This document shows positions 2,355-52,002 of a DNA stretch of 64,000 nt, piece by piece. Positions within the stretch are counted from its first letter, which is position 1; the number at the start of each line of letters is the position of its first letter. The position numbers and the translations under genes were made by a program. Origin of the DNA: Geodermatophilus obscurus DSM 43160 (GTDB lineage: Bacteria > Actinomycetota > Actinomycetes > Mycobacteriales > Geodermatophilaceae); assembly GCF_000025345.1 (NCBI RefSeq), contig NC_013757.1:496001-560000 (forward strand), read 5' to 3'. The notes beneath the pieces were generated by a model that was given only the letters and a program-made list of their open reading frames with translations, did no database searches and was not told the DNA's origin.

Positions 2355-2411
2355 GGCCCCGTCCAGGGCGCCGCCCCGAGCCTGTGAGGCACGGGGAGGA
2401 CGGGGTCCTCC
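2355..2411 (-). repeat. Family 1 palindromic element (copy a)
   Basis: This runs from GGCCCCGTCC (2355-2364) to GGGGAGGACGGGGTCCTC at its right end, with the core GAGCCTGTGAGG between. Read on the minus strand it begins two bases after the stop codon of the oxidase gene (TGA at 2413-2415), in the sense of that gene. The outer arms can pair as a GGACCCCGTCC / GGACGGGGCC stem. It matches the elements near 4901, 15828, 23702 and 26343. Confidence 0.75.
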
Positions 2412-2412
2412 G

Positions 2413-3498
2413 TCAGCCGACCCGGCGCAGCACCTCGGGGGAGAGCCGGTCGACCGCCGTGTGGCCGCTCAGCCCGAGCGTCAGGTCGAACTCGCCCAGC
2501 ACGTCGGACACCACCTGGCGCACGCCCTCCTCGCCGGCCAGGGCGAGCCCCCAGGCGAACGGCCGGCCGAGCAGCACCGCCCGTGCGCCGAGCGCGACCG
2601 CGGTGAGGACGTCGGCGCCGCTGCGCACCCCGCTGTCGAGCAGCACCGGCGCCTGGCCGCCCACCGCGGCCACCACGTCGGGGAGCGCGTCGAGCGCCGC
2701 GATCGAGCGGTCCACCTGCCGGCCGCCGTGCGTGCTGACCACCACGCCGTCCACGCCCTCGTCGAGCGCCCGGCGGGCGTCGTCCGGGTGCAGCACGCCC
2801 TTGAGCACGATGGGCAGCCGGGTGCGGGCCCGCAGCCAGGCCAGGTCGGCCCAGGTGATCGAGGGCCGGGAGTAGATGGACAGGAACGTCTCGACCGCGG
2901 CCCGTGGCAGCGGCGAGCGCAGGTTCTGCAGCAGCGGTCCCGGCCAGGCCCGCGCCATCCCGACCAGCGCGCGCACGGCCGCCAGCGTGGGCCGCGGCTG
3001 CCGGTCCCGGCCGGCCGCGGCGCCGGGCCGGGCCGGGGCGGGCGCCGCGGACGCCGCGGCCCGCTGCTCGGTCAGCCGGCGGAACACCGGGTCGGAGGTG
3101 TACTGCGCGATGCCCTTGCCCAGCGCGAAGGGCAGGTGCCCCAGGTCCAGGTCGCGGGGGCGCCAGCCGAGCATCGTGGTGTCGAGGGTGACCACCAGCG
3201 CGTCGCAGCCGCTGGCCTCCGCGCGCCCGACGAGGCTCTCCACGAGCTCGTCCGAGGTCGACCAGTAGAGCTGGAACCAGCGCGGCGACGAGCCCATGAC
3301 CGCGGCGCACTCCTCCATCGACACCGAGGCCTGGTTGGAGAAGACCATCGGCACACCGAGGGACGCCGCGGCGCGCGCCACCGCGAGGTCCGCCGCGGGG
3401 TGCACCAGCTCCAGCGCGCCGACCGGGCCGAGCAGGACCGGCGGCGTCCGGTGCCCGCTGCTGAGTCCACGACGACACGGTAGTGAGCGCTGGGTCAC
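2413..3498 (-). CDS. FMN-dependent alpha-hydroxy-acid oxidase / lactate 2-monooxygenase-like, N-terminally truncated (possible pseudogene)
   Basis: The 361-residue product matches the FMN-binding barrel of lactate monooxygenase/oxidase enzymes, which oxidise 2-hydroxy acids. Visible are FQLYW (75-79), [13 protein letters not shown] (111-123), the catalytic-lysine strand [14 protein letters not shown] (K233), STHGGRQ with base H257 and R260, [10 protein letters not shown] (288-297) and LLGRPFAWG (309-317). The family normally has about 75 more N-terminal residues, including an early active-site tyrosine region. Here the alignable part starts at [10 protein letters not shown] only 18 residues in, and an in-frame TGA stands just before the GTG at 3498. 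The missing part is not found in the other frames upstream. This suggests a 5' deletion rather than a frameshift. An Ala/Pro-rich insertion lies at about 148-170. The protein may be inactive. Confidence 0.75.
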
Positions 3499-3655
3499 AG
3501 CCCGTCAGACGGGCCAGGGGCGTCTTTTCACCGACACGCCGTAGCGACACGCGCGACCGGCCGGTAACCCCGGGTTGACGGTCCGGTTCCCCCGGCATCA
3601 TGGGCGGCACCGGCGCATCGCAGGCGCGCCGGCGCAGAACCAGGGGGAAGTGCAC

Positions 3656-4351
3656 GTGCAGGTGGCCACTCGGCCGGCGTCCGTCGCCGTCACGGCGCTC
3701 GCCCTGCTGTGCGCCGGCATCGCCCTCGCGGGCCCCGCGGCCGCCGTCGACGACGACGCCCGCCCCGACGCCCGCGTCACCCACGGGCCCAGTTGCCGCC
3801 CGGGCGGTGTGGTCGTCGAGGTCGCCGGCGGCACCGTCGGCCACGCGGTCACGCTGGGCACCAGCCGCCGTCCGGCAGGGGAGCAGACTGCGGAGGTCGC
3901 CCCCGGCGCCGTCGTCGTCCTCAACACCGGTCCGGTCGACTGGGGCGAGACCATCGACCCGTTCCTGCAGTACACGGCGCTGGACGGCTCGGGCGCCGGC
4001 TGGGTCGACGAGTTGATCGGCTACGACTTCACCCGGCCGGCCGCCGAGGACTGCGCGGCCATCAGCCCGCCCGCCGGCGCGGCGGTGGTCCCGCAGCACG
4101 GTGAGGCGGTGCCGATGCCGGTCCCCGGCCTGCCCGACCCGAGCAGCACCGGGCCCGCCGGGCCCTCCGACGGCACGCCCACCGCTCCGGTCTCCGCGCA
4201 GGAGGCGGCCGCGGTTCCCGGCGGCGTCCACTGGCCGGTGCTGGCCGCCGGAGGGGCGCTGGTCGCGGCGAGCACGGGGCTGGTCCTCGTCGCCGGCAGC
4301 CGGCGGCCGGGCGGCCGCTCCCGGGCACCTCGGTCCCTCGGGAGCGCCTGA
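3656..4351 (+). CDS. Secreted, C-terminally anchored protein of unknown function
   Basis: A 231-residue protein. The N-terminus (TRPASVAVTALALLCAGIALAG) is a signal peptide with probable cleavage after an Ala-rich site near residue 31. A small beta-rich domain with two cysteines follows (roughly 40-145). A Pro/Ser/Thr linker, a hydrophobic segment (about 196-217) and a basic tail (SRRPGGRSRAPRS) complete it, as in wall- or membrane-anchored surface proteins. There is no LPXTG. I start at GTG 3656 because AGGGGGA at 3642-3648 is well spaced; GTG 3650 is the alternative. It is divergent from the truncated oxidase. I do not recognise the domain. Confidence 0.7.
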   Translation: MQVATRPASVAVTALALLCAGIALAGPAAAVDDDARPDARVTHGPSCRPGGVVVEVAGGTVGHAVTLGTSRRPAGEQTAEVAPGAVVVLNTGPVDWGETIDPFLQYTALDGSGAGWVDELIGYDFTRPAAEDCAAISPPAGAAVVPQHGEAVPMPVPGLPDPSSTGPAGPSDGTPTAPVSAQEAAAVPGGVHWPVLAAGGALVAASTGLVLVAGSRRPGGRSRAPRSLGSA

Positions 4352-4376
4352 GCGCTCCGTCGGCGACGATGGAGGG

Positions 4377-4892
4377 GTGGCCCGCCCCGAGGACGCCCTG
4401 GCACCGGACCTCCCTGCCGAGCACGTGCCCGGGGACGTGGCCGACGTCCCGGGCGCGACACCGGGTCCGGCCGAGACCTGGCTGCGCATCGTGCAGGTGC
4501 ACGACCGCATCACCCGCCGCGTCGACTCGGCGCTGCACCGTCGGCACGACCTCTCGCTCACCGGGTACGAGGCGCTGCGGCGGATCGCCGAGGCCCCCGG
4601 CGAGCGGGCCACGATGGGCGAGGTGGCCGAGGCCCTCGGGATCTCCCGCGCCGGGGTGACCAGCACCGTCAGCCGGCTGGTCGCCGAGGGCTACGTCGTC
4701 CGGGAGCGCTCGTCCGGGGACAAGCGGCTGCTGCACGCCCGGCTCACCCCGGCCGGGCGGGCCAAGGTCGAGGAGGCCCGCCCCACCCACGACGGCCTGG
4801 TCGCCCACCTGCTCACCCTGTTGGGGGACGACGCCGCCGTCGTGACCGACGCCCTCGCCCGCGTCTCAGCGGCGGCCCGGACCCGCCGCTGA
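4377..4892 (+). CDS. MarR-family transcriptional regulator
   Basis: A 171-residue winged-helix protein. After an acidic N-terminal extension (1-37), the dimerisation helix WLRIVQVHDRITRRVDSAL is followed by LSLTGYEALRRIAEAPGERATMGEVAEALGISRAGVTSTVSRLVAEGYVVRE, the recognition helix and the start of the wing. The wing tip reads RSSGDKRLLHARLTPAG, the typical MarR DxR-type signature. The GTG at 4377 is chosen as the first in-frame start. No separate Shine-Dalgarno is placed correctly, but GACGAT lies upstream, so a leaderless transcript is possible. The ligand and targets are unknown. It is followed at once by a family 1 element. Confidence 0.88.
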   Translation: MARPEDALAPDLPAEHVPGDVADVPGATPGPAETWLRIVQVHDRITRRVDSALHRRHDLSLTGYEALRRIAEAPGERATMGEVAEALGISRAGVTSTVSRLVAEGYVVRERSSGDKRLLHARLTPAGRAKVEEARPTHDGLVAHLLTLLGDDAAVVTDALARVSAAARTRR

Positions 4893-4900
4893 AGGAGTAG

Positions 4901-4956
4901 AAGGACCCCGTCCTCCTCACCGCTCGCAAGCTCGCGGCGAGCCTCTGGACGGGGCC
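4901..4956 (+). repeat. Family 1 palindromic element (copy b)
   Basis: It begins AAGGACCCCGTCCTCCTCAC eight bases after the marR stop, continues through a small inner hairpin (GCTCG .. CGAGC) and ends GGACGGGGCC. The outer arms pair over about 10 bp. It lies in the sense orientation of the upstream gene. This is one of the cleanest copies. Confidence 0.85.
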
Positions 4957-5046
4957 GGGGGTCTCTCGGGGGCGGACGCACACTCGTCCGGGGACACTTC
5001 AAGCCCGTAGTGTTTCCACTCCAGCCATGGCGGGCAGGACGCGAAC

Positions 5047-6546
5047 ATGCAGGTGGGGATCGAGCAGTGCTCCGTGGTCGTGCCGACCGTCGGCCGACCG
5101 TCCCTGGACGTGCTCCTCGACGCCCTCGCGCAGGCCCCGGGACCGCGCCCGGCCGAGCTGGTGCTGGTCGACGACCGGCCCACCGGCGAGCCGCTGCGCC
5201 CCGAGCGGCCCGGCCTGCCGCCGGTACGGGTGGTGCGCACCGGGGGCGGTGGCCCGGCCCGCGCCCGCAACCTCGGCTGGCGCAGCGTGCGCACCGAGTG
5301 GGTGGCCTTCCTCGACGACGACGTCGTCCCCGACCCCGACTGGTACCAGCGGCTGGCCGAGGACCTCTCCGACCTGCCGGCCGACGTGGCCGGCAGCCAG
5401 GGCCGGGTGCGGGTGCCGCTGCCCGCGGACCGCCGGCCCACCGACTGGGAGCGGGGCACCGCGGGCCTGGCCACCAGCTCCTGGATCACCGCCGACCTCG
5501 CCTACCGCCGCGCCGCGCTGGCCGCGGTCGGCGGCTTCGACGAGCGCTTTCCGCGCGCCTTCCGCGAGGACTCCGACCTGGCCCTCCGGGTCATGGACAC
5601 CGGCGCCCGGCTGGTCCGCGGACGGCGCTTGATCACCCACCCCGTCCGCCCGGTCGACCGCTGGGTGAGCGTCCGGGTGCAGGCCGGCAACGCCGACGAC
5701 GTCCTCATGCGACGGCTGCACGGCCCCGGCTGGCGCGAGCGCGCCGACGCCCCGCTCGGCCGGCGGCCGCGACACCTGGCCGTCACCGTGGCCGGGCTGA
5801 CCGCCGTCGGTCTCGCCGCCGCCCGGCGGCCGCGCGCCGCGCTCGGCGCCGCGCTGGCCTGGGCGGCCGGCACCGGCGAGTTCGCCTGGGCGCGGATCGC
5901 CCCCGGCCCGCGCGACCGCGCCGAGGTCGGCACCATGCTCGCCACCAGCGCGCTGATCCCGCCGCTGGCCACGTGGCACTTCCTGCGTGGCGCGGTGCAG
6001 CACCGGCGGGTGCGGCCCTGGCGCGGGCTGCCCGACCTGGTCCTGTTCGACCGCGACGGCACCCTGGTCCGCGACTACCCGTACAACGGCGACCCGGCGC
6101 TGGTGAAGCCGGTGCCCGGGGCCCGCGAGGCCGTCGACGCGCTGCGCGCCCGCGGCGTCCGGGTGGGCGTGGTCAGCAACCAGTCCGGTGTCGCCCGCGG
6201 GCTGATCACCCGTGCGCAGGTCGACGCCTGCATGGCCCGGCTCGACGAGCTGCTCGGCCCGTTCGACACCGTGCAGGTCTGCCCCCACGGGCCGGACGAC
6301 GGCTGCACCTGCCGCAAGCCCGCGCCCGGGATGGTCAAGGCCGCCTGCGCCGAGCTCGACGTCGACCCCGCCCGCTGCGTGGTCATCGGCGACATCGGCG
6401 CCGACGTCGAGGCCGCCGCGGCCGCCGGCGCCTCCGGGGTCCTCGTCCCGACGCCGGTCACCCGGAGGGCCGAGGTCGAGGCGGCCCCCCGCCGTGCCGC
6501 GACGATCACCGAGGCGGTCGAGCAGGTCCTGGCGGGTGGGTGGTGA
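5047..6546 (+). CDS. Bifunctional GT2-like glycosyltransferase - D-glycero-heptose-bisphosphate phosphatase (GmhB-like HAD) fusion
   Basis: A 499-residue fusion. Residues 1-320 form a family 2 glycosyltransferase: CSVVVPTVGRPSL, VDD (41-43), the nucleotide-sugar/metal motif FLDDDVVPDP (DDD 90-92) and GGFDERFPRAFREDSDL. Residues 328-495 form a HAD phosphatase: LFDRDGTL (nucleophile D335, D337), SNQSG (377-381), and the zinc cluster CPHGPDDGCTCRKP (C412, H414, C420, C422) typical of GmhB, with GDIGAD near 448. GmhB removes the 7-phosphate in ADP-heptose synthesis. The fusion suggests that sugar-nucleotide supply and transfer are coupled. It is the first gene of a seven-gene run. ATG 5047 follows AGGACGCGAAC. 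Confidence 0.85.
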   Translation: MQVGIEQCSVVVPTVGRPSLDVLLDALAQAPGPRPAELVLVDDRPTGEPLRPERPGLPPVRVVRTGGGGPARARNLGWRSVRTEWVAFLDDDVVPDPDWYQRLAEDLSDLPADVAGSQGRVRVPLPADRRPTDWERGTAGLATSSWITADLAYRRAALAAVGGFDERFPRAFREDSDLALRVMDTGARLVRGRRLITHPVRPVDRWVSVRVQAGNADDVLMRRLHGPGWRERADAPLGRRPRHLAVTVAGLTAVGLAAARRPRAALGAALAWAAGTGEFAWARIAPGPRDRAEVGTMLATSALIPPLATWHFLRGAVQHRRVRPWRGLPDLVLFDRDGTLVRDYPYNGDPALVKPVPGAREAVDALRARGVRVGVVSNQSGVARGLITRAQVDACMARLDELLGPFDTVQVCPHGPDDGCTCRKPAPGMVKAACAELDVDPARCVVIGDIGADVEAAAAAGASGVLVPTPVTRRAEVEAAPRRAATITEAVEQVLAGGW

Positions 6547-7565
6547 GGCGCACGGTCCTGGTCGCCCGGCTGGACTCGGTCGGCGACGTCCTGGTCCAGG
6601 GGCCGCTGGTGCGCGCCGTGGCCGCTGGCGCCGACCGCGTCGTGTTCCTCGCCGGCCCGGCCGGCGCCGAGGCCGCCCGGCTGCTGCCCGGCGTCGACGA
6701 GGTGGAGACCTGGGCCTGCCCCTGGATCCTCGGCGACCCGCCGCCGGTCGACCCTGCCGACCTCGCCGCACTGACCGAGCGGATCCGCGCCCTCGCCCCC
6801 GACGAGGCCGTCGTCTCCACGTCCTTCCACCAGTCGCCGCTGCCCCTGGCGCTGGTGCTGCGCACCGCGGGCGTCCCGCGGATCTCCGCGATCAGCGTCG
6901 ACTACCCCGGGTCGCTGCTGGACGTCCGACACCGGGTGGACGACGACCTGCCCGAGCCCGAGCGCGCCCTGTCCCTCGCCCGCGCCGCGGGCTTCGACCT
7001 GCCGGCCGGCGACGACGGTCGGCTCGCCGTGCGCCGGCCCCTGCCCCCGGTCGCGCCCGAACCCAGGGGCCCTGACCTGCCGCCCGGGTACGTCGTCGTC
7101 CACCCCGGTGCCTCGGTACCCGCCCGGGCCTGGCCGGCGCACCGCTGCGCCGAGGCGGTCGAGGCGCTGGCCGACGCCGGACACCGGGTGCTCGTCACCG
7201 GCGGGCCGGGGGAGCGGGCGCTCACCGCGGCCGTCGCCGGGACCCGCGGCGTCGACCTCGGCGGTGCACTGGGCCTGGCGGAGCTGGCCGCGCTGCTCGA
7301 CGGCGCCGCGGCGGTCGTCGTCGGCAACACCGGCCCGGCCCACCTGGCCGCCGCCGTCGGCACGCCGGTCGTCTCGCTGTTCTCCCCGGTCGTGCCGGCC
7401 GCGCGCTGGGCGCCCTACGGCGTGCCCACCGTGCTGCTGGGCGACCAGGAGGCCCCCTGCCGGCTGACCCGGGCCCGCGAGTGCCCGGTCCCCGGCCACC
7501 CCTGCCTCACGTCGGTGACCGCGGACGACGTCGTCGCGGCTGTGGAGAAGGTGGGAAGCGCGTGA
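6543..7565 (+). CDS. GT9-family (ADP-heptose:acceptor heptosyltransferase-like) glycosyltransferase
   Basis: This 340-residue enzyme has the two-domain GT-B pattern of family 9. The N-terminal VLVARLDSVGDVLVQGPLVRAV matches the RLxxxGDVL start of WaaC/WaaF proteins, and the C-terminal half has VVVHPGASVPARAWP, VTGGPGE, and VGNTGPAHLAAAVGTPVVSLFSP, which bind the ADP-sugar. It would transfer a heptose, or a related sugar, to a glycan acceptor on the cytoplasmic side. Start GTG 6543 overlaps the stop of the preceding gene by 4 bp, so translation is probably coupled. The presence of GmhA, HldE and GmhB homologues in the same operon supports an ADP-heptose donor. Confidence 0.85.
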   Translation: MRRTVLVARLDSVGDVLVQGPLVRAVAAGADRVVFLAGPAGAEAARLLPGVDEVETWACPWILGDPPPVDPADLAALTERIRALAPDEAVVSTSFHQSPLPLALVLRTAGVPRISAISVDYPGSLLDVRHRVDDDLPEPERALSLARAAGFDLPAGDDGRLAVRRPLPPVAPEPRGPDLPPGYVVVHPGASVPARAWPAHRCAEAVEALADAGHRVLVTGGPGERALTAAVAGTRGVDLGGALGLAELAALLDGAAAVVVGNTGPAHLAAAVGTPVVSLFSPVVPAARWAPYGVPTVLLGDQEAPCRLTRARECPVPGHPCLTSVTADDVVAAVEKVGSA

Positions 7566-8542
7566 GGGTCCTGCTCTGGCACGTGCACGGCTCGTGGACG
7601 ACGGCGTTCGTGCAGGGGCAGCACGAGTACCTGCTCCCCGTCACCCCCGACCGGGGCCCCGACGGGCTGGGCCGCGCCCGCACCTGGGACTGGCCGGCGT
7701 CGGCCCGCGAGGTGCCCCCGGACCAGCTGCGCGACGAGGACGTCGACGTCGTCGTCCTGCAGCGGACCCGCGACCTGGACCTGGTCCGCGAGTGGCTGGG
7801 CCGCGAGCCCGGCCGCGACCTGCCCGCGGTCTTCCTCGAGCACAACGCGCCGGGCCTGGAGCCCGGCGACGGGCCGGTGCCGCACACCCGGCACCCGCTG
7901 GCCGACCGCGACGACATCCCGATCGCGCACGTCACGCACTTCAACCAGCTCTTCTACGACAACGGCCGGGCGCCGACGACGGTCATCGAGCACGGCATCG
8001 TCGACCCCGGCGAGCGCTACACCGGGGAGCTGGCGCGGGCCGCCGTCGTCACCAACGAGCCGGTCCGCCGCGGCCGCACGGTCGGCGCCGACCTGCTGCC
8101 CGGCCTCGCCGCGGTCGCGCCGGTCGACGTCTTCGGGATGGGGCTGGCCGGGTTGCACGAGCGCTACGGCCTCGACCCCGGCCGGGTCGCGCTGCACGAC
8201 GACCCGCCGCAGGCCGCGATGCACACCGAGCTGGCCCGCCGCCGGGTGTACGTGCACCCGGTCCGGTGGACCTCCCTCGGGCTCTCCCTGCTCGAGGCGA
8301 TGCACCTGGGCCTGCCGGTGGTCGCCCTGGCGACCACCGAGGCGGTGGAGGCGGTGCCGGCCGAGGCCGGCGTGCTCTCCACCCGTCCCGGCGTCCTGTG
8401 GGACGCCGTCCGCACCTACCTGCACGACGAGGACGCCGCCCGGCTGGCCGGCAAGGCGGCACGCGCCGCCGCGCTGGAGCGGTACGGGCTTCCCCGGTTC
8501 CTCCGCGATTGGGATGCGCTACTCGAGGAGGTGACCCGGTGA
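7562..8542 (+). CDS. GT4-like glycosyltransferase
   Basis: A 326-residue GT-B protein starting VRVLLWHVHGSWTTAFVQG. It has the donor-binding signature SLGLSLLEAMHLGLPVVALATTE near residues 238-260, the E-x7-E-like element of family 4 transferases. The N-terminal acceptor domain is poorly conserved and I cannot predict the acceptor. Start GTG 7562 overlaps the previous stop by 4 bp. It lies between the GT9 enzyme and a second GT4, consistent with assembly of a short oligosaccharide. Confidence 0.78.
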   Translation: MRVLLWHVHGSWTTAFVQGQHEYLLPVTPDRGPDGLGRARTWDWPASAREVPPDQLRDEDVDVVVLQRTRDLDLVREWLGREPGRDLPAVFLEHNAPGLEPGDGPVPHTRHPLADRDDIPIAHVTHFNQLFYDNGRAPTTVIEHGIVDPGERYTGELARAAVVTNEPVRRGRTVGADLLPGLAAVAPVDVFGMGLAGLHERYGLDPGRVALHDDPPQAAMHTELARRRVYVHPVRWTSLGLSLLEAMHLGLPVVALATTEAVEAVPAEAGVLSTRPGVLWDAVRTYLHDEDAARLAGKAARAAALERYGLPRFLRDWDALLEEVTR

Positions 8543-9795
8543 TCACCGACCGGCTGGGCGCGTGGCCGCTCACCATCGACATGGTCTCCGAACACGCCAG
8601 CCCGCTCGCCGCGATCGGCGGCGTGGACGCCGGCGGGCAGAACGTGCACGTCGCCGCGCTCGCCGCGGGCCTGGCCCGCCGCGGGCACGCGGTGACCGTG
8701 CACACCCGCCGGGAGGACCCGGACCAGCCCGACCGCGTGTCCACGGCCGACGGCTACGACGTCGCGCACGTGACGGCGGGGCCGGCCCGGGTGCTGCCCA
8801 AGGACGACCTGCTGCGGCACATGCCCGAGTTCGCGTCGGTGCTGCGCCGCGAGTGGGCGCAGCGGCCTCCGGACCTGGTGCACGCGCACTTCTGGATGAG
8901 CGGGCTGGCCGCGGTCGCCGCCGCCGGGGACATCCCGGTCGTGCAGACCTTCCACGCGCTGGGTTCGGTCAAGCGCCGCCACCAGGGTGCCGCCGACACC
9001 TCGCCGCCGCAGCGCGTCGAGCTGGAGCGGTCGCTGTGCCGGACCGTCGGCCACGTGGTCGCCACCTGCTCCGACGAGGTCTTCGAGCTGCGCCGGCTTG
9101 GCCTGGACAGCGACCGCGTCTCGGTCGTGCCCTGCGGCGTGGACACCACGGTGTTCACCCCGCGCGGACCGGTCGCGCCGCGCGGGGACCGCAAGCGGCT
9201 GCTCGTCCTCGGCCGGCTGGTCGAGCGCAAGGGGCAGGAGGACGCCGTCCGCGCGCTGGCCGCCGTCCCCGACGCCGAGCTGGTCGTCGTCGGCGGGCCC
9301 CCGGCCGCGCAGCTGGACGACGACGCCGAGGTGCGCCGGCTGCGCGCGGTCGCCGCCTCGCTGGGGGTCGCGGACCGGCTGGTCCTCACCGGCGCGGTGG
9401 CCCGCGCCGACGTCCCGGCGTGGATCCGCTCGGCCGACGTCGTGCTGGCCGTGCCCTGGTACGAGCCCTTCGGCATCACCCCGCTGGAGGCCATGGCCTG
9501 CGGCCGGCCGGTGGTCGCCACCGCGGTCGGCGGGCTGCAGGACTCCGTCGCCGACGGGGTCACCGGCGACCTGGTCCCCGCCCGGGACCCGGCCCGGCTC
9601 GGCGAGGCGCTCGCCGCGCTGCTGGCCGACGACGCCCGCCGCGCGGCCTACGGCACGGCCGGGGTGCGACGCGCCCGCAACCGCTACCGGTGGGCCCGCG
9701 TGGTCGCCGACACCGACACCGTCTACCGGCAGGTCCTGGCCGGCCCCGTACGCACCGATGACGGCGACAGGAGCCCCGTGGAGGCCGCCCGATGA
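8539..9795 (+). CDS. GT4-family glycosyltransferase (sucrose-phosphate-synthase/MshA-like)
   Basis: This 418-residue family 4 enzyme has GGVDAGGQNVHVAALAAGLA (28-47), the N-terminal loop typical of retaining GT4 enzymes such as sucrose-phosphate synthase and MshA. The Rossmann motif LLVLGRLVERKGQ comes next, then the donor motif EPFGITPLEAMACGRPVVAT. It uses a nucleotide-activated sugar; donor and acceptor cannot be read from sequence. The GTG at 8539 overlaps the preceding stop (GTGA). The C-terminus extends past the domain (DDGDRSPVEAAR) and overlaps the gmhA start by 4 bp. Confidence 0.82.
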   Translation: MITDRLGAWPLTIDMVSEHASPLAAIGGVDAGGQNVHVAALAAGLARRGHAVTVHTRREDPDQPDRVSTADGYDVAHVTAGPARVLPKDDLLRHMPEFASVLRREWAQRPPDLVHAHFWMSGLAAVAAAGDIPVVQTFHALGSVKRRHQGAADTSPPQRVELERSLCRTVGHVVATCSDEVFELRRLGLDSDRVSVVPCGVDTTVFTPRGPVAPRGDRKRLLVLGRLVERKGQEDAVRALAAVPDAELVVVGGPPAAQLDDDAEVRRLRAVAASLGVADRLVLTGAVARADVPAWIRSADVVLAVPWYEPFGITPLEAMACGRPVVATAVGGLQDSVADGVTGDLVPARDPARLGEALAALLADDARRAAYGTAGVRRARNRYRWARVVADTDTVYRQVLAGPVRTDDGDRSPVEAAR

Positions 9796-10472
9796 ACCCC
9801 GCCCCCCTCTCCGAGGCCCCCCACTCCACGAGCGAGGTCGTCTCGCCCGACACGTGCACGCACCTCACCGGCGCCGACCACGTCGCGTCGCTGACCGTCG
9901 CGCTCGGGTCGCTGAACGGGCAGCTCGACGCGCTCGACCGCTGGGGCCGGCTGATCGCCGACGTGCTCTGCGGGGAGGACCGCGGCCGGCTGCTCGCGGC
10001 CGGCAACGGGGGCAGCGCTGCGCAGGCCCAGCACCTGACCGCCGAGCTGGTCGGCCGCTACCGGGCCGACCGGCCGCCGTTCTCCGCGATCTGCTTGACC
10101 GCCGAGACCTCGTCGCTGACCGCGATCGCCAACGACTACCCGGCCGACGAGCTGTTCGCCCGCCAGGTGGAGGCGCACGGCCGGGCCGGCGACGTGCTGG
10201 TGCTGCTGTCGACGTCCGGCCGCAGCCCCAACGCGGTCGCGGCCGCCCGCCGGGCCCGCGAGTGCGGCATCACCGTGCTGGCGATGACCGGCCCGGCGCC
10301 CAACCCGCTGGCCGCGGTGTGCGACGACGCGGTCTGCATCGACTCCCCGTGGACGGCGACGGTCCAGGAGTGCCACCTGGTCGCGCTGCACCTCGTGTGC
10401 GCGGCCTTCGACGCGGCGGTGCTGGCCGAGCCGGCGCGCGTGCCGGAGACCCGGCTCGGGGTCGCTCAGTGA
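9792..10472 (+). CDS. gmhA: Sedoheptulose-7-phosphate isomerase (GmhA)
   Basis: A 226-residue SIS-domain protein. It would convert sedoheptulose 7-phosphate to D-glycero-D-manno-heptose 7-phosphate, the first step of ADP-heptose synthesis. Diagnostic features are AAGNGGSAAQAQHLTAEL (about 70-87), LSTSGRSPNA and the C-terminal TVQECHLVALHLVC with the E/H pair of the GmhA active site. The N-terminus has about 35 residues more than E. coli GmhA. The ATG overlaps the upstream stop by 4 bp, and hldE follows with the same overlap. Confidence 0.9.
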   Translation: MNPAPLSEAPHSTSEVVSPDTCTHLTGADHVASLTVALGSLNGQLDALDRWGRLIADVLCGEDRGRLLAAGNGGSAAQAQHLTAELVGRYRADRPPFSAICLTAETSSLTAIANDYPADELFARQVEAHGRAGDVLVLLSTSGRSPNAVAAARRARECGITVLAMTGPAPNPLAAVCDDAVCIDSPWTATVQECHLVALHLVCAAFDAAVLAEPARVPETRLGVAQ

Positions 10473-11863
10473 GCGCGACGGGTCCGCTGGTCGTCGTCGG
10501 CGACGCGCTGCTCGACGTCGACCTGGTCGGGACGGCGTCCCGGCTCACCCCCGACGCGCCCGTGCCCGTCGTCGAGGACGTCGAGGCCCGCGAGCGCCCC
10601 GGCGGCGCAGCCCTGGCGGCGGTGATCGCGGCCCGGGCCACCCGCCGGGAGGTCGTGCTGGTCACCCCGATGGCCGACGACGAGGACGCCGACCGGCTGC
10701 GTGCGCTGCTCGCCGGCCGGGTGCGCCTCGTCGAGATCCCGGCGACCGGCGGGACGGCCGTGAAGCGCCGGGTGCGGGTGGGCGACCACTCGGTGGCGCG
10801 CATCGACAGCGGCGCCCCGGTGGCGGGGCTGGGGACGCTGCCCGCCGAGGCGGCTGCCGTCGTGCGCGACGCCGCCGCGGTGCTCGTCGCCGACTACGGC
10901 CGGGGGACGACGGCCGACCGCGCCGTCCGCGCGGTGCTGGCCGAGGCCGGTGGGCCGGTGGTCTGGGACCCGCACCCGCGCGGCGCGGACCCGGTGCCCA
11001 ACGCGCGGCTGGTGACGCCCAACGGCGCCGAGGCCGCCCGCGTCGCCTCGGCGGCCGGGACGGCCGCCGGCGTGGCCGCCCAGGGTGAGGGCCTGGCGGC
11101 GGTCGGCGCGCGGGCCGAGGCACTGATCCGGCACTGGGGCGTGGGCGCGGTCTCGGTGACCCTCGGCGCCCGCGGTGCGCTGCTCTCCTACGGCGAGGGC
11201 GCCCCGATGGTGGTGCCGGCGGTACCGGTGACCGGGGGCGACCCGTGCGGCGCGGGTGACTCGTTCGCGGCCGCGGCGGCGATCGCGCTGGCCGACGGCG
11301 CCGTGACGGGCGAGGCGGTGGCGGCCGCGGTCGCCTTCGCCGGCCGTTTCGTCGCCCGCGGCGGCGCCTCGGCGTGGGACGTCGAGGCCGCACCCGAGCC
11401 GAGCCCGGCCGCCGAGCCCGGGGCCGATGGCGTGATCGCCCGGGTCCGCGCGGCCGGCGGGACCGTCGTCGCCACCGGCGGCTGCTTCGACCTGCTGCAC
11501 CCCGGCCACGTGGCGACGCTGCGGGCCGCCCGCGGGCTGGGTGACTGCCTGGTGGTGTGCATCAACTCCGACGACTCGGTGCGCCGACTCAAGGGCTCCT
11601 CCCGGCCGCTGGTGACCGCGGCCGACCGGGCGCGGGTGCTGGAGGCGCTGGAGTTCGTCGACGCGGTCGTGGTGTTCGACGAGGACACCCCGGCCGAGGT
11701 GATCGGGCGGCTGCGCCCGGACGTGTGGGCCAAGGGCGGCGACTACGCCGGCGCCGACCTGCCCGAGGCCGCGGTGCTGCGGCGCTGGGGCGGCCAGGCC
11801 GTCGTGCTGCCCTACCTCGACGGGCACTCCACGACCGCCCTGGTCGAGCGCTCCCGCGTGTGA
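10469..11863 (+). CDS. hldE: Bifunctional D-beta-D-heptose 7-phosphate kinase / heptose 1-phosphate adenylyltransferase (HldE)
   Basis: The 464 residues contain both HldE domains in the usual order. The PfkB-type kinase (1-300) includes RPGGAALAA (43-51) and the anion-hole/base motif GGDPCGAGDSF (D264). The nucleotidyltransferase (about 325-464) includes GGCFDLLHPGHVATL (HxGH near 344-347) and INSDDSVRRLKG. The kinase makes heptose 1,7-bisphosphate and the transferase makes ADP-heptose after GmhB dephosphorylation. With GmhA and the GmhB domain at 5047, the pathway to ADP-D-glycero-heptose is complete here; no HldD epimerase is encoded nearby. A family 1 element abuts its stop codon. Confidence 0.9.
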   Translation: MSATGPLVVVGDALLDVDLVGTASRLTPDAPVPVVEDVEARERPGGAALAAVIAARATRREVVLVTPMADDEDADRLRALLAGRVRLVEIPATGGTAVKRRVRVGDHSVARIDSGAPVAGLGTLPAEAAAVVRDAAAVLVADYGRGTTADRAVRAVLAEAGGPVVWDPHPRGADPVPNARLVTPNGAEAARVASAAGTAAGVAAQGEGLAAVGARAEALIRHWGVGAVSVTLGARGALLSYGEGAPMVVPAVPVTGGDPCGAGDSFAAAAAIALADGAVTGEAVAAAVAFAGRFVARGGASAWDVEAAPEPSPAAEPGADGVIARVRAAGGTVVATGGCFDLLHPGHVATLRAARGLGDCLVVCINSDDSVRRLKGSSRPLVTAADRARVLEALEFVDAVVVFDEDTPAEVIGRLRPDVWAKGGDYAGADLPEAAVLRRWGGQAVVLPYLDGHSTTALVERSRV

Positions 11864-11956
11864 AGGAGGACCCCGCCGCCCCCCGGCCGCGTCCCGGTGG
11901 CCCTCCTGCAGGGGCCCGCCGCGAGCCTGCGAGCGGTGGGGGGCAGGAGGGTCCTT
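11864..11956. repeat. Family 1 elements (copy c): degraded sense copy plus complete inverted copy
   Basis: AGGAGGACCCCGCC directly follows the hldE stop and looks like the start of a degraded sense-oriented copy. A complete 58-bp copy in the opposite orientation occupies 11899-11956. It runs from GGCCCTCCTGCAGG, through the core CCGCGAGCCTGCGAG, to GCAGGAGGGTCCTTC. Its stem uses CCCTCCTGC/GCAGGAGGG instead of the usual CCCGTCC/GGACGGG, so both arms changed together. Its AGGAGG (11945-11950) lies 11 nt before the next start codon. Confidence 0.8.
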
Positions 11957-11961
11957 CTGCA

Positions 11962-12897
11962 GTGGCCGTCGTGCTGCGGCCGCTGGGGCTGGGCGACCTG
12001 CTCACCGGGGTGCCCGCGATCCGCGCCGTGCGGGCGGCCGTCCCCGGCCACCGGCTGGTGCTCGCCACCACGGCGGCGCTCGAGCCGCTGGCCTCGTTGA
12101 TCGACGCGGTCGACGAGGTGCTGCCCGCCCGCGAGCTGGAGCCGCTGGACTGGTCCGGCCCGCCGCCGGAGCTCGCCGTCGACCTGCACGGCAAGGGGCC
12201 GGCCTCGCACGTCGTCGTGGCCGACCTGCGCCCCGGGCGGCTGCTCACCTTCGACAGCCCCGGCTACCCCGGGCCGACCTGGCACCCCGACGAGCACGAG
12301 GTGCGGCGCTGGTGCCGGCTGGTCGCCGAGGGGCTGGACGTGGACGCCGACCCCGACGCGCTCGACCTCGCCGTGCCCTCCGTGCCCCCGCCCGCCCCGG
12401 CCGGTGTGGCGCTGGTGCACCCGGGCGCGGCGTTCCCCGGCCGGCGCTGGCCCGCCGACCGGTTCGCCGCCGTCGCCCGGCACCTGGCCGCGCGCGGTCT
12501 GGACGTGCGGATCACGGGGGGCCCGGCCGAGGTGCCGCTCGCGCGGGCGGTGGCCGAGGGCGCCGGGCTGGGGGAGGGCTGCGTCCTGGCCGGGCGGACG
12601 ACGACGCTCGAGCTGGCCGCGGTGGTCGCCGGTGCCCGCGTCGTGGTCAGCGGCGACACCGGCCTGGCGCACCTGGCGACCGCCTACCGCCGTCCCTCGG
12701 TGGTGCTGTTCGGTCCGGTGTCCCCGGCGCTGTGGGGGCCACCGCTCAGGGCCCGGGAGCGAGGGCCACTGCACGTCGTCCTCTGGCACGGGGACGGGAC
12801 CGGGGACCCGTGGGGCACCGAGCTCGACCCGGCGCTGGGGCGCATCACGGTCGACGAGGTGACCGCGGCGCTCGACGCCCTGCTGGCCCGCACCTGA
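11962..12897 (+). CDS. Second GT9-family heptosyltransferase-like glycosyltransferase
   Basis: A 311-residue GT9 protein: VVLRPLGLGDLLTGVPAIRAV at the N-terminus, VDLHGKGPAS near 74-83, VALVHPGAAFPGRRWPADRF, ITGGPAEV and VSGDTGLAHLATAYRRPSVVLFGP at the C-terminus. It is paralogous to the gene at 6543 and shorter. It would add a second heptose-type sugar. Unlike its neighbours it does not overlap the preceding gene; the family 1 repeat fills the gap and supplies the only purine-rich AGGAGG before GTG 11962. GTG 11971 is an alternative start. It is the last gene of the glycan run. Confidence 0.83.
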   Translation: MAVVLRPLGLGDLLTGVPAIRAVRAAVPGHRLVLATTAALEPLASLIDAVDEVLPARELEPLDWSGPPPELAVDLHGKGPASHVVVADLRPGRLLTFDSPGYPGPTWHPDEHEVRRWCRLVAEGLDVDADPDALDLAVPSVPPPAPAGVALVHPGAAFPGRRWPADRFAAVARHLAARGLDVRITGGPAEVPLARAVAEGAGLGEGCVLAGRTTTLELAAVVAGARVVVSGDTGLAHLATAYRRPSVVLFGPVSPALWGPPLRARERGPLHVVLWHGDGTGDPWGTELDPALGRITVDEVTAALDALLART

Positions 12898-12952
12898 GAG
12901 GACCCCTCCTCACCACACCCCGCAGGCTCGGTGCGGGGCCCTGGGGGGCCGC
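12898..12952 (+). repeat. Family 1 palindromic element (copy d)
   Basis: GAGGACCCCTCCTCACC starts at the base after the glycosyltransferase stop. The core is CCCCGCAGGCTCGGTGCGGGG, and the right end is TGGGGGGCC. The arms GGACCCC and GGGGGCC still pair although the sequence departs from the consensus. It is sense-oriented to the upstream gene and probably marks the end of the glycan operon. Confidence 0.75.
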
Positions 12953-13017
12953 GGGAGCGGGTCAGCGGCGACCGACGTGCGGCACCTGGTCGCGGTGCGG
13001 TCCGGAGGACCGCGACG

Positions 13018-14661
13018 TCACCGCTGCCGCAGCGCGTCGAACAGGACGGTCTGCAGGTCCGTCGGGTCGACCGCGGAGTAGGCCGCGCCGCCGGTCACGT
13101 CCGCGATCCGCTCGAGGGCACCCAGGTCGGCGTCCGGGCCGAGCGCTACACCGATGACCTTGATCGGCCGATCGGGGTCGGCCTCGCTGCGCAGCGTGGC
13201 CAGCAGCTCGTCGAGGTCCACGCCCCCGCTGTCCTCGTTCGTCCCGTCGGTGACCACCAGCACGCTGTTGACCGCGCGCGGGTCGAAGTCCGAGCGCGCC
13301 GCCCGCACCGCGTCCAGCGTGGTGTCGTACAGGCCGGTGCCGCCGGGGCTGAGCCGGTCGGGGATGGTGTCGAGCTCCTCGTCGAGCAGGTCGCGCTGGA
13401 CGGTGCCCTCGACCTCCGCCTCGAGCTGACGCGTGGGCACGACCTCGGTCCAGTCGCGCTCGCCATCCAGCTCGGCGGCGAAGAACCACAGCCCGAGCGC
13501 GAAGTTGCCCGGCACCAGCGTGAGCGTGCTCTTGGCGGCGTCCCGGGCGAGCGTGGCCCGGGTGCCGTCGCCGGCCGGGGCCTCCATCGAGGTGGAGATG
13601 TCGAAGACGGTGAGGATCCGGGACGGCGCGGCCAGCTCCGACAGCTGCGCCAGCAGCCCCTGCACCTCGGCGGGGTCGAGCTGCAGGGACCGCGGAGCGG
13701 CCTCGCGGATCCCCGCCGCCTCGGCGCCGGGCGGCGCGGTGCCGTCGGCGTCACGGAAACCCGCCTCGGTGACGGCGGAGCGCGCGGCGTCCGAGGTGAG
13801 CGCCCGCACGGCGGCGTCCACCACGGCGGCGTCGGTGGCGGAGGCGGTGCCGACCCGGACCAGCGGGTAGTCCAGCCCCGGTGAGCCCTCCTCCGGGTAG
13901 ACGGCGACCAGCTGCGGGTCCTCCGCGTCGGCGTTGGCCGCCCACACCTCCTGCTCGCTGACCGGCACCAGCGGCGCGTCGGCCGCGCCCTCGCCGCCGG
14001 CGGCCAGCGCGTCGGCCGGGGAGACCGACGGTCCGCGCTCGGCGGCGAGCACCGCCTGCACCACGGCGTTGTCGGCGTCCTCGCCGCCGCCCAGCGACGT
14101 CCGCACGGCGCCCAGCGCGGCGAGGGCCTCGGCGCTGGTCGCCAGGTCCGGGACGGCGATGCCCTGCTCGCTGACCAGCGCCGCACCCCACCCCGGCGCC
14201 TCGGCGGTCCAGCCCAGCGCGTCCACGGCCGCGCGGCTGGTGGCCAGCACCACGGGGGAGGTGGCGACCGATCCGGCGGTCTCCAGGGCGGCGTGCCCGG
14301 CGCGGGCCGGCCACAGCGAGGAGTCGGGCACCCACAGGTGCGGCAGGTCCCCGGCGTCCAGCGCACCCAGGTCGCCGACGGTCTGCACCGGCTCCTGCGC
14401 GGTGACCTGGGCGGAGGCGCAGTCCTCGGGGCGCAGGCCCTCGGCGTCGGTGAGCACCTGCTCGGCGACGGGCGCCAGCTCGGGGGCGACGGCGACGCGC
14501 ACGACCGCGGTGCCGTCGCAGTTCCCGCTCCCGGCGCCGACGGCCCACCACGTGATGCCGCCGGCCAGCAGCACCATCGCGGCCACCGCCAGCGCGATGA
14601 GGACCTGCGGCGTCAGCGGCGCCGGTCGGCGCGCGGCTGGGGTGGCGGCGTGGCGGCCCAT
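13018..14661 (-). CDS. Membrane-anchored solute-binding / von Willebrand factor A domain protein
   Basis: A 547-residue protein. A short cytoplasmic N-terminus and a transmembrane segment (about 18-43) are followed by an extracytoplasmic periplasmic-binding-protein-like region (about 48-335). A VWA domain completes it, with a complete-looking MIDAS: DISTS near 353-357, SPGGTGLYD and VVTDGTN near 468. The VWA fold binds protein ligands through a metal ion. The arrangement resembles actinobacterial substrate-binding and VWA domain proteins of unknown process. It stands alone on the minus strand, convergent with the glycan operon. The ligand is unknown. Confidence 0.8.
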   Translation of the reverse strand: MGRHAATPAARRPAPLTPQVLIALAVAAMVLLAGGITWWAVGAGSGNCDGTAVVRVAVAPELAPVAEQVLTDAEGLRPEDCASAQVTAQEPVQTVGDLGALDAGDLPHLWVPDSSLWPARAGHAALETAGSVATSPVVLATSRAAVDALGWTAEAPGWGAALVSEQGIAVPDLATSAEALAALGAVRTSLGGGEDADNAVVQAVLAAERGPSVSPADALAAGGEGAADAPLVPVSEQEVWAANADAEDPQLVAVYPEEGSPGLDYPLVRVGTASATDAAVVDAAVRALTSDAARSAVTEAGFRDADGTAPPGAEAAGIREAAPRSLQLDPAEVQGLLAQLSELAAPSRILTVFDISTSMEAPAGDGTRATLARDAAKSTLTLVPGNFALGLWFFAAELDGERDWTEVVPTRQLEAEVEGTVQRDLLDEELDTIPDRLSPGGTGLYDTTLDAVRAARSDFDPRAVNSVLVVTDGTNEDSGGVDLDELLATLRSEADPDRPIKVIGVALGPDADLGALERIADVTGGAAYSAVDPTDLQTVLFDALRQR

Positions 14662-14752
14662 CGTGCAGCTCCCCCGTCCAGGTGGTCAGCGTCCCCGGCG
14701 ACCCCCGCGACCGCCCACTACACAGTAGATGCGGTCGCTGACCCGCTGTGGA

Positions 14753-15730: not shown

Positions 15731-15827
15731 GCCTGCTCCCATCCACGAACCGGACGCGCGACCGTGCGCGCCGGAGCGGCTCCTACCCCGTGATCACCAA
15801 CGCACACACTTCGACGTCTAAGTGTTC

Positions 15828-15936
15828 GGCCCCGTCCAGAGGCTCCGCGAGCTCTGCGGCCCCCTTGCAGGGTCCCGCCGCGAGCCTGCGAGAGGCGGGG
15901 GGAAGGGGGTCCTTCGAGAGGGGACGGGGTCCTTCC
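15828..15936 (-). repeat. Family 1 element with a second copy nested inside (copy e)
   Basis: An outer copy begins GGCCCCGTCCAGAGGCTCCG at 15828 and ends GGGGACGGGGTCCTTCC at 15936. Between its halves lies a complete second copy (15858-15915) from GGCCCCCTTGCAGGG through CCGCGAGCCTGCGAG to AAGGGGGTCCTTC. Read on the minus strand, the composite starts within two bases of the DUF2630 stop codon (TAG at 15938-15940). The nested arrangement implies that one copy inserted into another. Confidence 0.8.
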
Positions 15937-15937
15937 G

Positions 15938-16171: not shown

Positions 16172-16290
16172 GGACGCTCCCTGCCCGCCGCGTCGCGGGC
16201 GAAACCGGTCAGCCGGCGACGCCGCCGGTCGGCTTCCGCCCCCGGGCCGCTCCTCGGTCGCCGGCGCTCCCCGCGGTGCTCGCGACGCCG

Positions 16291-17648: not shown

Positions 17649-17706
17649 GATCAGAGGCTATGACCCACCCGCTCCTCCGGCCCCCGCGCGCCCAGGCCCC
17701 CGCGCC

Positions 17707-19519: not shown

Positions 19520-19550
19520 CCCCGTCCCCGGCCCACCTTTCCTCCCCGGC

Positions 19551-19653: not shown

Positions 19654-19670
19654 ACCGCAGGGGGCACTCG

Positions 19671-23701: not shown

Positions 23702-23757
23702 AGGGAGAGGACCCCGTCCTCCTCACCCCTCGCAGACTCGGGACGGGGTCGGGGCGT
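23702..23757 (+). repeat. Family 1 palindromic element (copy f)
   Basis: GAGAGGACCCCGTCCTCCTC, core CACCCCTCGCAGACTCGGG, end GGACGGGGTC. This is a near-consensus copy and the only one not next to a stop codon: it lies between the divergent transporter gene and ffs. Confidence 0.85.
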
Positions 23758-26345: not shown

Positions 26346-26402
26346 AGGACCCCGTCCTCCCCACCCTTCGCGAGCTCAGGGTGGGACCCGGGACGGGGCC
26401 GG
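26343..26402 (+). repeat. Family 1 palindromic element (copy g)
   Basis: TGAAGGACCCCGTCCTCCCC begins with the dnaX stop codon itself, followed by the core ACCCTTCGCGAGCTCAGGG and end GGACGGGGCC. It fills most of the gap between dnaX and the convergent SRPBCC gene. It is sense-oriented to dnaX. Confidence 0.85.
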
Positions 26403-41761: not shown

Positions 41762-41828
41762 GGCGGGCTCCTCCTCGGGGTACCGGTCGGGCCAGCATGC
41801 CGATCCGGGAGGCGGCGCGGTAGTCGCC

Positions 41829-41906: not shown

Positions 41907-41917
41907 TGGAGGCGGCG

Positions 41918-43663: not shown

Positions 43664-45472
<1,809 letters not shown>

Positions 45473-50706: not shown

Positions 50707-51269
50707 CGGTCGAGCCCGCCGCGACCCGGCTGCGCCACCAGGTCCCGCTCATGGCCTGGCTGGTGGTGGTGTGGATGCTGCTCTGGGGCACCTGGTCCTG
50801 GGCGAACCTGATCTCCGGCCTGCTCGTCGCGCTGACCGTGCTGACGCTGCTGCCGTTGCCGCACGTGGTCGGCGGCGCCCGGGTGCGGCCGCTGCCGCTG
50901 CTGGTCTTCCTCGGCCACTTCGTCGTGGACCTGTTCGCTTCCGGGGCCGAGGTCGCCTGGCAGGCCCTGCGGCCGGGCGGGGTGCACCGCACGGCGATCG
51001 TGCAGGTGCAGCTGCGCGCCGACTCCGACCTGCTGCTGACCATGGTCGCCGAGGCGACCTCGCTCGTCCCCGGCTCCCTGGTCCTCGACCTGGACCGGGA
51101 ACACCGGGTGATGACCCTGCACATGCTGCCCGCACGCGACCTCGAGGACGTGGCGCGGAAGAAGGCGAACGTGCTGGTGGTCGAAGAGCGCCTGGTCCGG
51201 GCGTTCGGCTCGCCTGCGGACCTCGCCGCCCTCGACGGGTACGGGCGGGCGGAGGTGCGGACGTCGTGA
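50703..51269 (+). CDS. mnhE: Mrp antiporter subunit E
   Basis: A 188-residue protein with WLVVVWMLLWGTWSWANLISGLLVALTVLTLLPLP at the N-terminus and the MnhE cytoplasmic part with VVDLFASGAEVAWQALRP, LTMVAEATSLVPGSLVLDL and HMLPARDLEDVARKKANVLVVEERL. It is required for assembly of the Mrp complex. GTG 50703 overlaps the mnhD stop. Confidence 0.93.
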   Translation: MTVEPAATRLRHQVPLMAWLVVVWMLLWGTWSWANLISGLLVALTVLTLLPLPHVVGGARVRPLPLLVFLGHFVVDLFASGAEVAWQALRPGGVHRTAIVQVQLRADSDLLLTMVAEATSLVPGSLVLDLDREHRVMTLHMLPARDLEDVARKKANVLVVEERLVRAFGSPADLAALDGYGRAEVRTS

Positions 51270-51595
51270 TGATCGTGAGCTCACTGCTGTACGCGCTGAT
51301 CGGCGGGGGAGCGCTGCTGGCTCTCGTCCGCCTGGCGCGGGGACCCTCGCTGCTGGACCGGGTCGTCGCGACGGACACGCTGCTGGTGATCATCGCGGCG
51401 GGCCTGGCCGTGCACGCCGCGCTGCAGCGCGATCCCACGCTCGTACCGGTGCTGGTCGTGGTCTCGCTGCTGGCCTTCGTCGGCTCGGTCTCGGTCGCCC
51501 GCTACATCGGCGGGATGCTGCTGCGCTCCCGCACGGGGGACGGCAGTGACCTCGGCCTGCCGGTCGCGGCCGAGGTGCGGGAGGAGCAGCCGTGA
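51269..51595 (+). CDS. mnhF: Mrp antiporter subunit F
   Basis: A 108-residue membrane protein with three helices; LARGPSLLDRVVATDTLLVIIAAGLAV is the conserved MnhF core. I use ATG 51269, which overlaps the mnhE stop as TGATG; GTG 51266 one codon upstream is equally possible. It overlaps mnhG by 4 bp. Confidence 0.92.
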   Translation: MIVSSLLYALIGGGALLALVRLARGPSLLDRVVATDTLLVIIAAGLAVHAALQRDPTLVPVLVVVSLLAFVGSVSVARYIGGMLLRSRTGDGSDLGLPVAAEVREEQP

Positions 51596-52002
51596 CGGCG
51601 CTGGCCGACGTCGTCGCGTTCGCCTGCCTGCTGGCCGGCGCCGTCCTGTGCCTCACCGCCGGGCTCGGGCTGGTGCGCTTCCCCGACGTGCTGTCCCGGA
51701 TGCACGCCGGCACCAAACCCCAGGTGCTCGGCGTCCTGCTGGTGATGGTCGGCGCCGCGATCCGGCTGGACGGCTGGGCCAACGCGTGGATGCTGCTCCT
51801 CGTGGCCGCCTTCCAGATGCTGACCGCACCGGTGAGTGCGCACCTGATCAGCCGGGTCGCCTACCGCCGCCGGCACGTCCGGCGCGACCTGTTGCTCATC
51901 GACGAGTTCGGTCCGGCCGGCCACCAGGACCTGCGGTACCGGGGTGACGAGCCCGGCGACGCCCCGCCCGAGGAGGACGGGGTCCTTCCTCAGTCGAGCT
52001 GA
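51592..52002 (+). CDS. mnhG: Mrp antiporter subunit G
   Basis: A 136-residue subunit with three helices: VAFACLLAGAVLCLTAGLGLVRFPDVLSRMHAGTKPQVLGVLLVMVG is the MnhG signature. The hydrophilic tail after residue 100 ends PEEDGVLPQSS, and its last codons are part of a family 1 half-repeat. The gene end overlaps the end of the convergent VOC gene by 13 bp, so the last residues are probably of recent, repeat-derived origin. Confidence 0.92.
   Translation: MTALADVVAFACLLAGAVLCLTAGLGLVRFPDVLSRMHAGTKPQVLGVLLVMVGAAIRLDGWANAWMLLLVAAFQMLTAPVSAHLISRVAYRRRHVRRDLLLIDEFGPAGHQDLRYRGDEPGDAPPEEDGVLPQSS
51970..51989 (-). repeat. Family 1 half element (copy h) in the mnhG/VOC convergent end
   Basis: GAGGAGGACGGGGTCCTTCC is the right arm of the family 1 consensus. 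Read on the minus strand it directly follows the TGA of the VOC gene, in sense orientation, and on the plus strand it encodes part of the MnhG tail. The left arm and core are absent. Confidence 0.65.

What the first reader, a model, noticed from the sequence alone, without database searches (positions are those of the whole stretch)
2355..52002. Family 1: a stop-codon-associated palindromic element in ten full or partial copies
A module of about 55-60 bp recurs at 2355-2411, 4901-4956, 11864-11956 (two), 12898-12952, 15828-15936 (two), 23702-23757, 26343-26402 and 51970-51989 (half). In gene-sense orientation it reads stop codon, 0-9 bases, AGGACCCCGTCCTCC, a core like CTCGCAGGCTCG, then GGACGGGGCC. 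Seven or eight copies follow a stop codon in the sense of that gene, within nine bases; only 11899 (antisense, before a start) and 23702 (no adjacent stop) differ. Such polarity is not expected of random repeats. It suggests a transposable terminator or mRNA 3'-end module that spread through the genome.
Basis: seen in the sequence. Interest (0 to 1): 0.8.

Follow-up and report, generated by a model that had tools for sequence, protein, structure and literature searches.

The report
Tagged mobile palindromes parked on stop codons
A 55-base DNA hairpin has spread to hundreds of places in this soil bacterium and its relatives, often in one exact position just behind a gene's stop codon and often inside another copy of itself, with no recognised moving enzyme.

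Summary
In detail: ten full or partial copies are there, and the window is a small sample. The 12-mer AGGACCCCGTCC occurs 221 times in the genome against 3 for the reversed control. The unit, AGGACC...GGCC, about 55 nt, is a bulged two-part hairpin with strong covariation. It is confined to Geodermatophilaceae (102 of 112 genomes; 1 of 245 others sampled in the class, weakly). It behaves like mobile DNA: identical 55-mers sit in unrelated flanks, orthologous sites differ in presence, orientation and type, and copies lie inside other copies' loops. A degenerate 5' tag GNRG, whose first G is the stop codon's G, explains both spacings and also precedes copies away from stops. This is REP-like anatomy, but no Y1 (RAYT) transposase was found in 112 genomes. 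G-T mismatches are not commoner than A-C ones, so selection on an RNA hairpin is not evident. A terminator role is possible but unproven. Best reading: a REP-like mobile palindrome with an unidentified mobiliser.

The parts
2355..2409 (-). complete copy; TGA of the 2413-3405(-) gene, 3 nt (CGG), then AGGACC
   Evidence: (66.4 bits)
4902..4956 (+). complete copy; 5' tag GTAG at 4897-4900; gene stop TGA 4890-4892; absent from G011 and G001 at the same site
   Evidence: (84.7 bits)
11867..11894 (+). left half of a sense copy at TGA+3, broken by the antisense copy that follows
11899..11955 (-). complete antisense copy, stem type CCCTCCTGC/GCAGGAGGG, read as nested in the 11867 copy
   Evidence: (63.4 bits)
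12899..12950 (+). old copy at TGA+1; orthologous copies with drifted stems in G011, G001 and G023
   Evidence: (52.3 bits)
15828..15933 (-). outer copy (CCCCGTCC/GGACGGGG) at TAG+4, split by the inner copy
15858..15913 (-). inner copy (CCCCCTTC/CAAGGGGG) nested in the loop of the outer copy; G017 has a single copy at this site
   Evidence: (61.3 bits)
23708..23756 (+). copy in a divergent region upstream of the SRP RNA gene; absent from G011 and G017
   Evidence: (38.4 bits)
26346..26400 (+). complete copy directly after the TGA (26343-26345) of the 24048-26345 gene (dnaX by my recall); absent from G011 and G017
   Evidence: (80.6 bits)
51970..51986 (-). left half only, at TGA+3 of the 51990-52727(-) reading frame; also half in G011, absent in G009 and G017

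Best explanation
It is a non-autonomous, REP-like mobile palindrome that moves or is copied as DNA. The unit is a 5' unpaired tag (consensus G-N-R-G, often GTGG, GAAG, GAGG or GTAG), one purine, then the hairpin AGGACC...GGCC. Shown: the unit's limits, covariation, spread to unrelated flanks, presence/absence at orthologous sites, self-nesting, and the tag. Inferred: it inserts next to a G (or in a hairpin loop), so that its tag starts on that G. Where the G belongs to a stop codon (TG|A or TAG|) the reading frame still ends, the insertion does no harm, and it is kept; hence the preferred TGA+3 and TAG+4 positions and the sense bias. Insertion into the loop of a resident copy is also harmless and builds nests and stacks. 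The mobiliser is unknown. Any terminator or mRNA-end effect would be secondary.
For: Six groups of identical 55-mers in 2 to 5 contexts each (20 contexts); flank agreement is 0.79 at -5, 0.86 at -2 and 0.68 at -1, and 0.18-0.54 at the other positions printed. GNRG at -5..-2 in 70 of 150 copies (the 150 best of 186 hits) against 24 of 600 background positions, and in 36 of 66 copies not beside a stop-like triplet. TGA+3 81 and TAG+4 8, none crossed, Fisher 1.4e-11, 1080 genes; own genome alone 55 and 6 of 600 genes; 80 further named loci 48 and 6 of 565 genes, with 2 TAG+3, 3 TGA+4 and 1 TAA+4. Own genome against G011: 12 sites with a complete copy in only one of the two, and at #34 opposite orientations (by eye). 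29 same-orientation and about 6 antisense nests by my reading of 129 complete copies. One full copy plus four further right halves stacked behind one stop in G025, at most a GGGACC remnant in G006 (#5). 242 cells with double changes against 67 in shuffles. G-T 30, A-C 46.
Against: No enzyme found: Y1 in 0 of 112 genomes, Y2 in 1 of 112 (a genome without copies), RT and IS110 presence does not follow copy number. No clean target-site duplication seen; by my reading the outer copy loses roughly 10-14 loop bases on nesting. The tag is degenerate: 80 of 150 copies do not fit GNRG. 29 of the 118 AGGACC close behind a stop lie at -1, 0, +1 or +2, not at the two preferred offsets. Some sites are old and drift in place (12899, 2355), as expected of a kept function. 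The stop rule rests on my own gene caller.
Confidence: 0.6

Rival explanations
1. Transposable terminator: the hairpin ends transcription behind the stop codon and was spread and kept for that function.
For: Complete copies by regex: 39 in 22.3 kb of convergent, 57 in 70.0 kb of tandem (42 sense, 15 antisense) and 6 in 30.8 kb of divergent intergenic DNA (of 129, 26 fell in predicted genes and 1 at an edge). 10 of 28 own and 19 of 30 G011 model hits lie within -3..12 nt of a same-strand stop, against 3% of random intergenic positions. Stems covary.
Against: Offset depends on stop-codon type. G-T not commoner than A-C. No T run. A hairpin so close to the stop would be under the terminating ribosome (PMC4824070, passages; E. 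coli data). Antisense and divergent copies exist.
Confidence: 0.22
2. No dedicated mobiliser: copies spread by DNA repair, template switching or gene conversion between hairpins, with loops as break sites.
For: Nesting with loss of about 10-14 loop bases, right-half stacks, and one copy whose left arm is extended into a reverse complement of its right arm (#30, 38, 56 #5). No transposase candidate among the four families tested.
Against: Identical units with sharp ends in unrelated flanks and a recurrent tag at G ask for a defined reaction; the empty forms of several sites show no resident copy (#8, #12, #23).
Confidence: 0.15
3. Ordinary intrinsic terminators inherited vertically, alike by GC-rich composition.
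For: A few sites are orthologous in several species (12899 and 2355).
Against: 221 exact 12-mers against 3 control; presence/absence and orientation differences; identical 55-mers.
Confidence: 0.03

Closest known systems
GTAG-tagged REP / REPIN elements with RAYT (Y1) transposases
   Same: High-copy extragenic imperfect palindromes with an unpaired GTAG-like tag at one end (degenerate GYRG, GTRG and GTGG forms are described in PMC3733652), within-genome spread.
   Different: Longer two-part hairpin (55 nt); tag often lies on the stop codon; copies nest in loops; no Y1 gene found in 112 family genomes. PMC3733652 lists GTAG repeats in Proteobacteria, Cyanobacteria, Chloroflexi and the PVC group, and its main text has no occurrence of Actinobacteria, Frankia or Geodermatophilus (passages).
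CGTC-tagged REPs
   Same: Tagged palindromes said to lack a dedicated transposase (PMC3733652, passages).
   Different: Different tag, 8-9 bp stems, 4-5 base loops, mostly in alpha-proteobacteria.
Intrinsic (rho-independent) terminators
   Same: GC hairpin behind the stop, mostly in sense orientation.
   Different: No T run, stop-dependent offset, mobile, no G-T excess.
DNA uptake sequences (recalled)
   Same: Short exact motif in hundreds of copies, often paired as hairpins at gene ends.
   Different: Only 7 of 95 exact 12-mers lie in predicted genes; unit is a long hairpin and nests.

Membership tests
GTAG REP superfamily | high-copy, mostly extragenic palindrome | tested here: met
   221 exact 12-mers; 2 of 58 covariance-model hits in predicted genes
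GTAG REP superfamily | unpaired GTAG-like tag at one end | tested here: met
   in degenerate form only: GNRG at -5..-2 in 70 of 150, background 24 of 600; exact GTAG in 10 of 150, GTGG in 17
GTAG REP superfamily | associated Y1 tyrosine transposase (RAYT) | tested here: not met
   PF01797: 0 of 112 family genomes at E 0.001; control rings in 5 of 14 genomes
GTAG REP superfamily | head-to-head dimers (BIME/REPIN) | tested here: inconclusive
   nests seen: 29 same-orientation, about 6 antisense of 129; free inverted pairs were not counted
Intrinsic terminator | GC hairpin followed by a T run | tested here: not met
   terminator scan of window 1-20000 only: 0 found, 1.1 in shuffles; bases +1..+8 after 150 copies are 3-15% T
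Intrinsic terminator | transcripts end there | not testable with these tools
   no RNA data
Intrinsic terminator | RNA-level stem constraint (G-U excess over A-C) | tested here: not met
   G-T 30, A-C 46 of 2412 cells, 143 distinct copies; no positive control was run
Known RNA family (Rfam 15) | match to a model | tested here: not met
   window: 5 matches (4 tRNA, SRP RNA), none on a copy; two 3-kb loci at E up to 1: two sub-threshold hits, neither on the copy
DNA uptake sequence | motif common inside genes too | tested here: not met
   7 of 95

The most novel reading that the evidence does not exclude
A new class of actinobacterial mobile palindrome whose insertion tag has evolved to lie on stop codons, so that each insertion leaves the stop intact. 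It is mobilised by a still unknown hairpin-DNA enzyme, and it also uses its own loops as safe landing sites.
Probability: 0.35. Interest if true: 0.8.

Novelty: new variant of a known kind. Interest (0 to 1): 0.62.

Why it matters
It adds a REP-like system in a phylum not among those named in the passages of the survey I read, recently active by the look of its identical copies, yet without the transposase held to move REPs. The stop-codon rule offers a direct handle on target choice: it helps to separate 'inserted there' from 'selected there'. Near-empty sister genomes (0 to 6 copies) make a search for the missing enzyme possible. It also warns against annotating such post-stop hairpins as terminators.

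Tried and rejected
RAYT/Y1: none in 112 genomes. Y2/IS91: one hit, in G066, a genome without copies; the 14-genome control did not ring, so that control says nothing. IS110 (74 of 112): absent from G011, G022 and G025 (150, 150 and 148 hits), present in copy-free G026. Only these four families were tested. Phage carriage: 0 viral contigs with one exact 20-base pattern. 'The element brings its own stop codon': at 9 clear presence/absence sites next to a stop (#4, #8, #10, #11, #12, #22, #23, #30, #33) the stop is in the same place in 8 (same triplet in 6, TGA/TAA exchanged in #11 and #22); #10 shifts by a codon. A second palindrome family was tried as a control for the G-T/A-C test (3 G-T, 4 A-C) but is itself symmetric, so of no use. 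E. coli REPs: 6 GTAG REPs in the first 50 kb, none on a stop codon (same-strand stops 59, 60, 82 and 105 nt away for four, thousands for two). A target duplication was looked for by eye and not found.

Not in print as far as searched: in five full-text searches no listed title or abstract start deals with this family. PMC9686282, a Geodermatophilaceae paper with two uses of 'palindromic', was listed and not opened. Only CC-licensed PMC papers are held.

Limits: L001-L020 were chosen because they hold hits, so densities from them are biased; the 261 kb stretch and the genome surveys were not chosen hit by hit, though the 261 kb stretch contains the window and two of those stretches (L004, L005). 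Relatives share orthologous sites, and the 80 named loci were chosen for holding a copy and include species used before, so pooled counts are not independent; own-genome counts are given apart. Of the 59 hits, I carried 58 into; the weakest, in L107, was left out. In G006/G025 the shorter GGACC lies at more offsets (22 hits at 0 to +5, of which 8 are TGA at +4, the place that AGGACC at +3 gives), so the rule is looser there. I dropped 7 of 36 upstream matches as coding or artefact by eye.

Full report
What is there. The window is G000:C1:496001-560000 of a single-contig genome of 5,322,497 bases. That the genome itself is G. obscurus DSM 43160 is recalled from its size. AGGACCCCGTCC occurs 221 times in the genome (105 forward, 116 reverse), the reversed pattern 3 times.

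Structure. From 34 copies of 55 nt I built a covariance model. The hairpin is A-GG-(A bulge)-CCCCGTCC, an internal loop, a second stem with a 10-base loop (TCGCRVGCTC), and back to GGACGGGG-CC. In the 150 best of 186 hits from 1.5 Mb (143 distinct), 96.0% of 2412 cells are paired and 242 cells carry changes on both sides, against 67 in shuffles; sliding the partners removes the signal. The alignment was fitted to this structure, which leans the counts towards it. Several stem types exist (CCCCGTCC, CCCCCTGC, CCACCCTTC and others), each with its own complement. The model finds 28 copies in the contiguous 261 kb of the own genome, which would be some 570 in the whole genome if that stretch is typical (inference). 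The genome-wide search scores at most 150 candidates, and all 150 matched.

Distribution. 26 of 26 genomes of the genus and 102 of 112 of the family have matches. The exact 15-mer varies from 1 to 176 copies within the genus. Some genomes are nearly empty: G026 0, G054 1, G042 and G075 2, G032 5, G082 6; nine genomes of three further genera (g5-g7, most of them incomplete) have none. In a class-wide sample of 246 genomes only the own genome and one other match, the latter with two weak hits.

Mobility. Six groups of identical 55-mers occur in 2 to 5 contexts each whose flanks do not agree beyond the tag positions. In 261 kb of own genome against 266 kb of G011 (collinear, most blocks 92-97% identical), copies mark many of the breaks in alignment. 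I read 12 sites as holding a complete copy in one and none in the other (own only #4, #9, #10, #17, #22, #23, #30, #33; G011 only #8, #11, #12, #14), one site with opposite orientations (#34), and several with a nest in one and a single copy in the other (#7, #16, #25). The closest pair among the 26 genus genomes at this locus (G006 and G025, 95.3%) shows the same, for example #12 and #15. Other sites are old and drift in place (12899, 2355).

Nests. Of 129 complete copies in 1.14 Mb, 36 have GGACC shortly upstream in the same sense; I accept 29 of these as nests inside a copy of the same orientation and about 6 others as antisense nests. By my reading the outer copy has lost about 10-14 loop bases. 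In G025 one stop codon is followed by a full copy and four further right halves, most parted by a 16-base tail (GTTCCAGCACGTCACT and the like), whereas G006 has at most a GGGACC remnant there (#5). So new copies land in the loops of old ones, or replace their left halves.

Stop codons. With my own gene caller (about 90% coding), 10 of 28 own and 19 of 30 G011 model hits start within -3..12 nt of a same-strand stop, against 3% of random intergenic positions. Over 1080 genes, 164 have AGGACC within 57 nt behind the stop; 118 of these start at -1 to +4: 9 at -1, 8 at 0, 10 at +1, 2 at +2, 81 at +3 (all TGA) and 8 at +4 (all TAG) (Fisher for +3/+4 by TGA/TAG 1.4e-11). Four control 6-mers show at most 5 at +3, antisense GGTCCT 1. 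In the own genome alone the numbers are 55 TGA+3 and 6 TAG+4 of 600 genes. In 565 genes of the 80 named loci they are 48 TGA+3, 2 TAG+3, 6 TAG+4, 3 TGA+4 and 1 TAA+4; G006/G025 add 8 TGA+3 and 1 TGA+1 of 327 genes. Both preferred spacings put the G of the stop at position -5.

The tag explains it. Copies not beside a stop-like triplet also have G at -5 (77% of 66) and at -2 (80%), and mostly purines at -3 and -1. GNRG fills -5..-2 in 70 of 150 copies against 24 of 600 shifted positions. The commonest tags are GTGG, GAAG, GAGG, GTAG and GGAG. So the element reads GNRG-R-AGGACC...GGCC, and at stops the tag lies on the stop codon: T[GARG] or TA[GNRG]. Orthologous empty sites mostly keep the stop in the same place (8 of 9), so the element comes to a stop that is already there.

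RNA or DNA. If a sense RNA hairpin were selected, G-U intermediates should outnumber A-C. They do not: 30 against 46 (13 of the A-C lie at one pair). No positive control was run. A terminator hairpin this close behind a stop is repressed by the ribosome in E. coli (PMC4824070, passages read); whether that holds in Geodermatophilus is unknown. Density is highest between convergent genes and lowest between divergent ones, which both readings predict. I therefore rate the terminator function as possible, not shown.

Mobiliser. Y1 was found in none of 112 genomes, Y2 in one copy-free genome, and RT and IS110 do not follow copy number. The anatomy is that of GTAG-tagged REPs (PMC3733652, PMC2817692; passages), but the transposase test fails, so I do not file it as a GTAG REP. 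It works like one, by inference.

Noticed in passing
window 19553-19586, 19618-19651, 55412-55445, 55477-55510: A second palindrome, TCGTGCTCTGCCCAC...GTGGGCAGAGCACGA, in direct pairs exactly 65 nt apart; the same 65-nt pairing appears in relatives (L096 7773/7838, L098 6786/6851).
   Followed up: partly
own genome 628063-628147 and 659993-660092 (#26, #28); G006 stretch (#13): A repeat of the kind GTGAGCG...CGAGCTCACCCATG...GACGAGCGYCAGCGAGGAGG...GTGAGCG that looks inserted at or near GTG start codons, in part flanked by GTGAGCG.
   Followed up: no
G025 stretch, #5; L001 7842-7980; L017 2460-2600: Stacks of right halves parted by a tail like GTTCCAGCACSTCAC, left arms lost: layered replacement of old copies by new ones.
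   Followed up: partly
own genome 685084-685153 (L104 8088-8146; #30): A copy whose left arm is extended into a reverse complement of its own right arm, as if corrected by copying one arm from the other.
   Followed up: no
family genomes G026, G032, G042, G054, G075: Relatives almost free of the element, useful for finding the mobiliser by gene presence and absence.
   Followed up: partly
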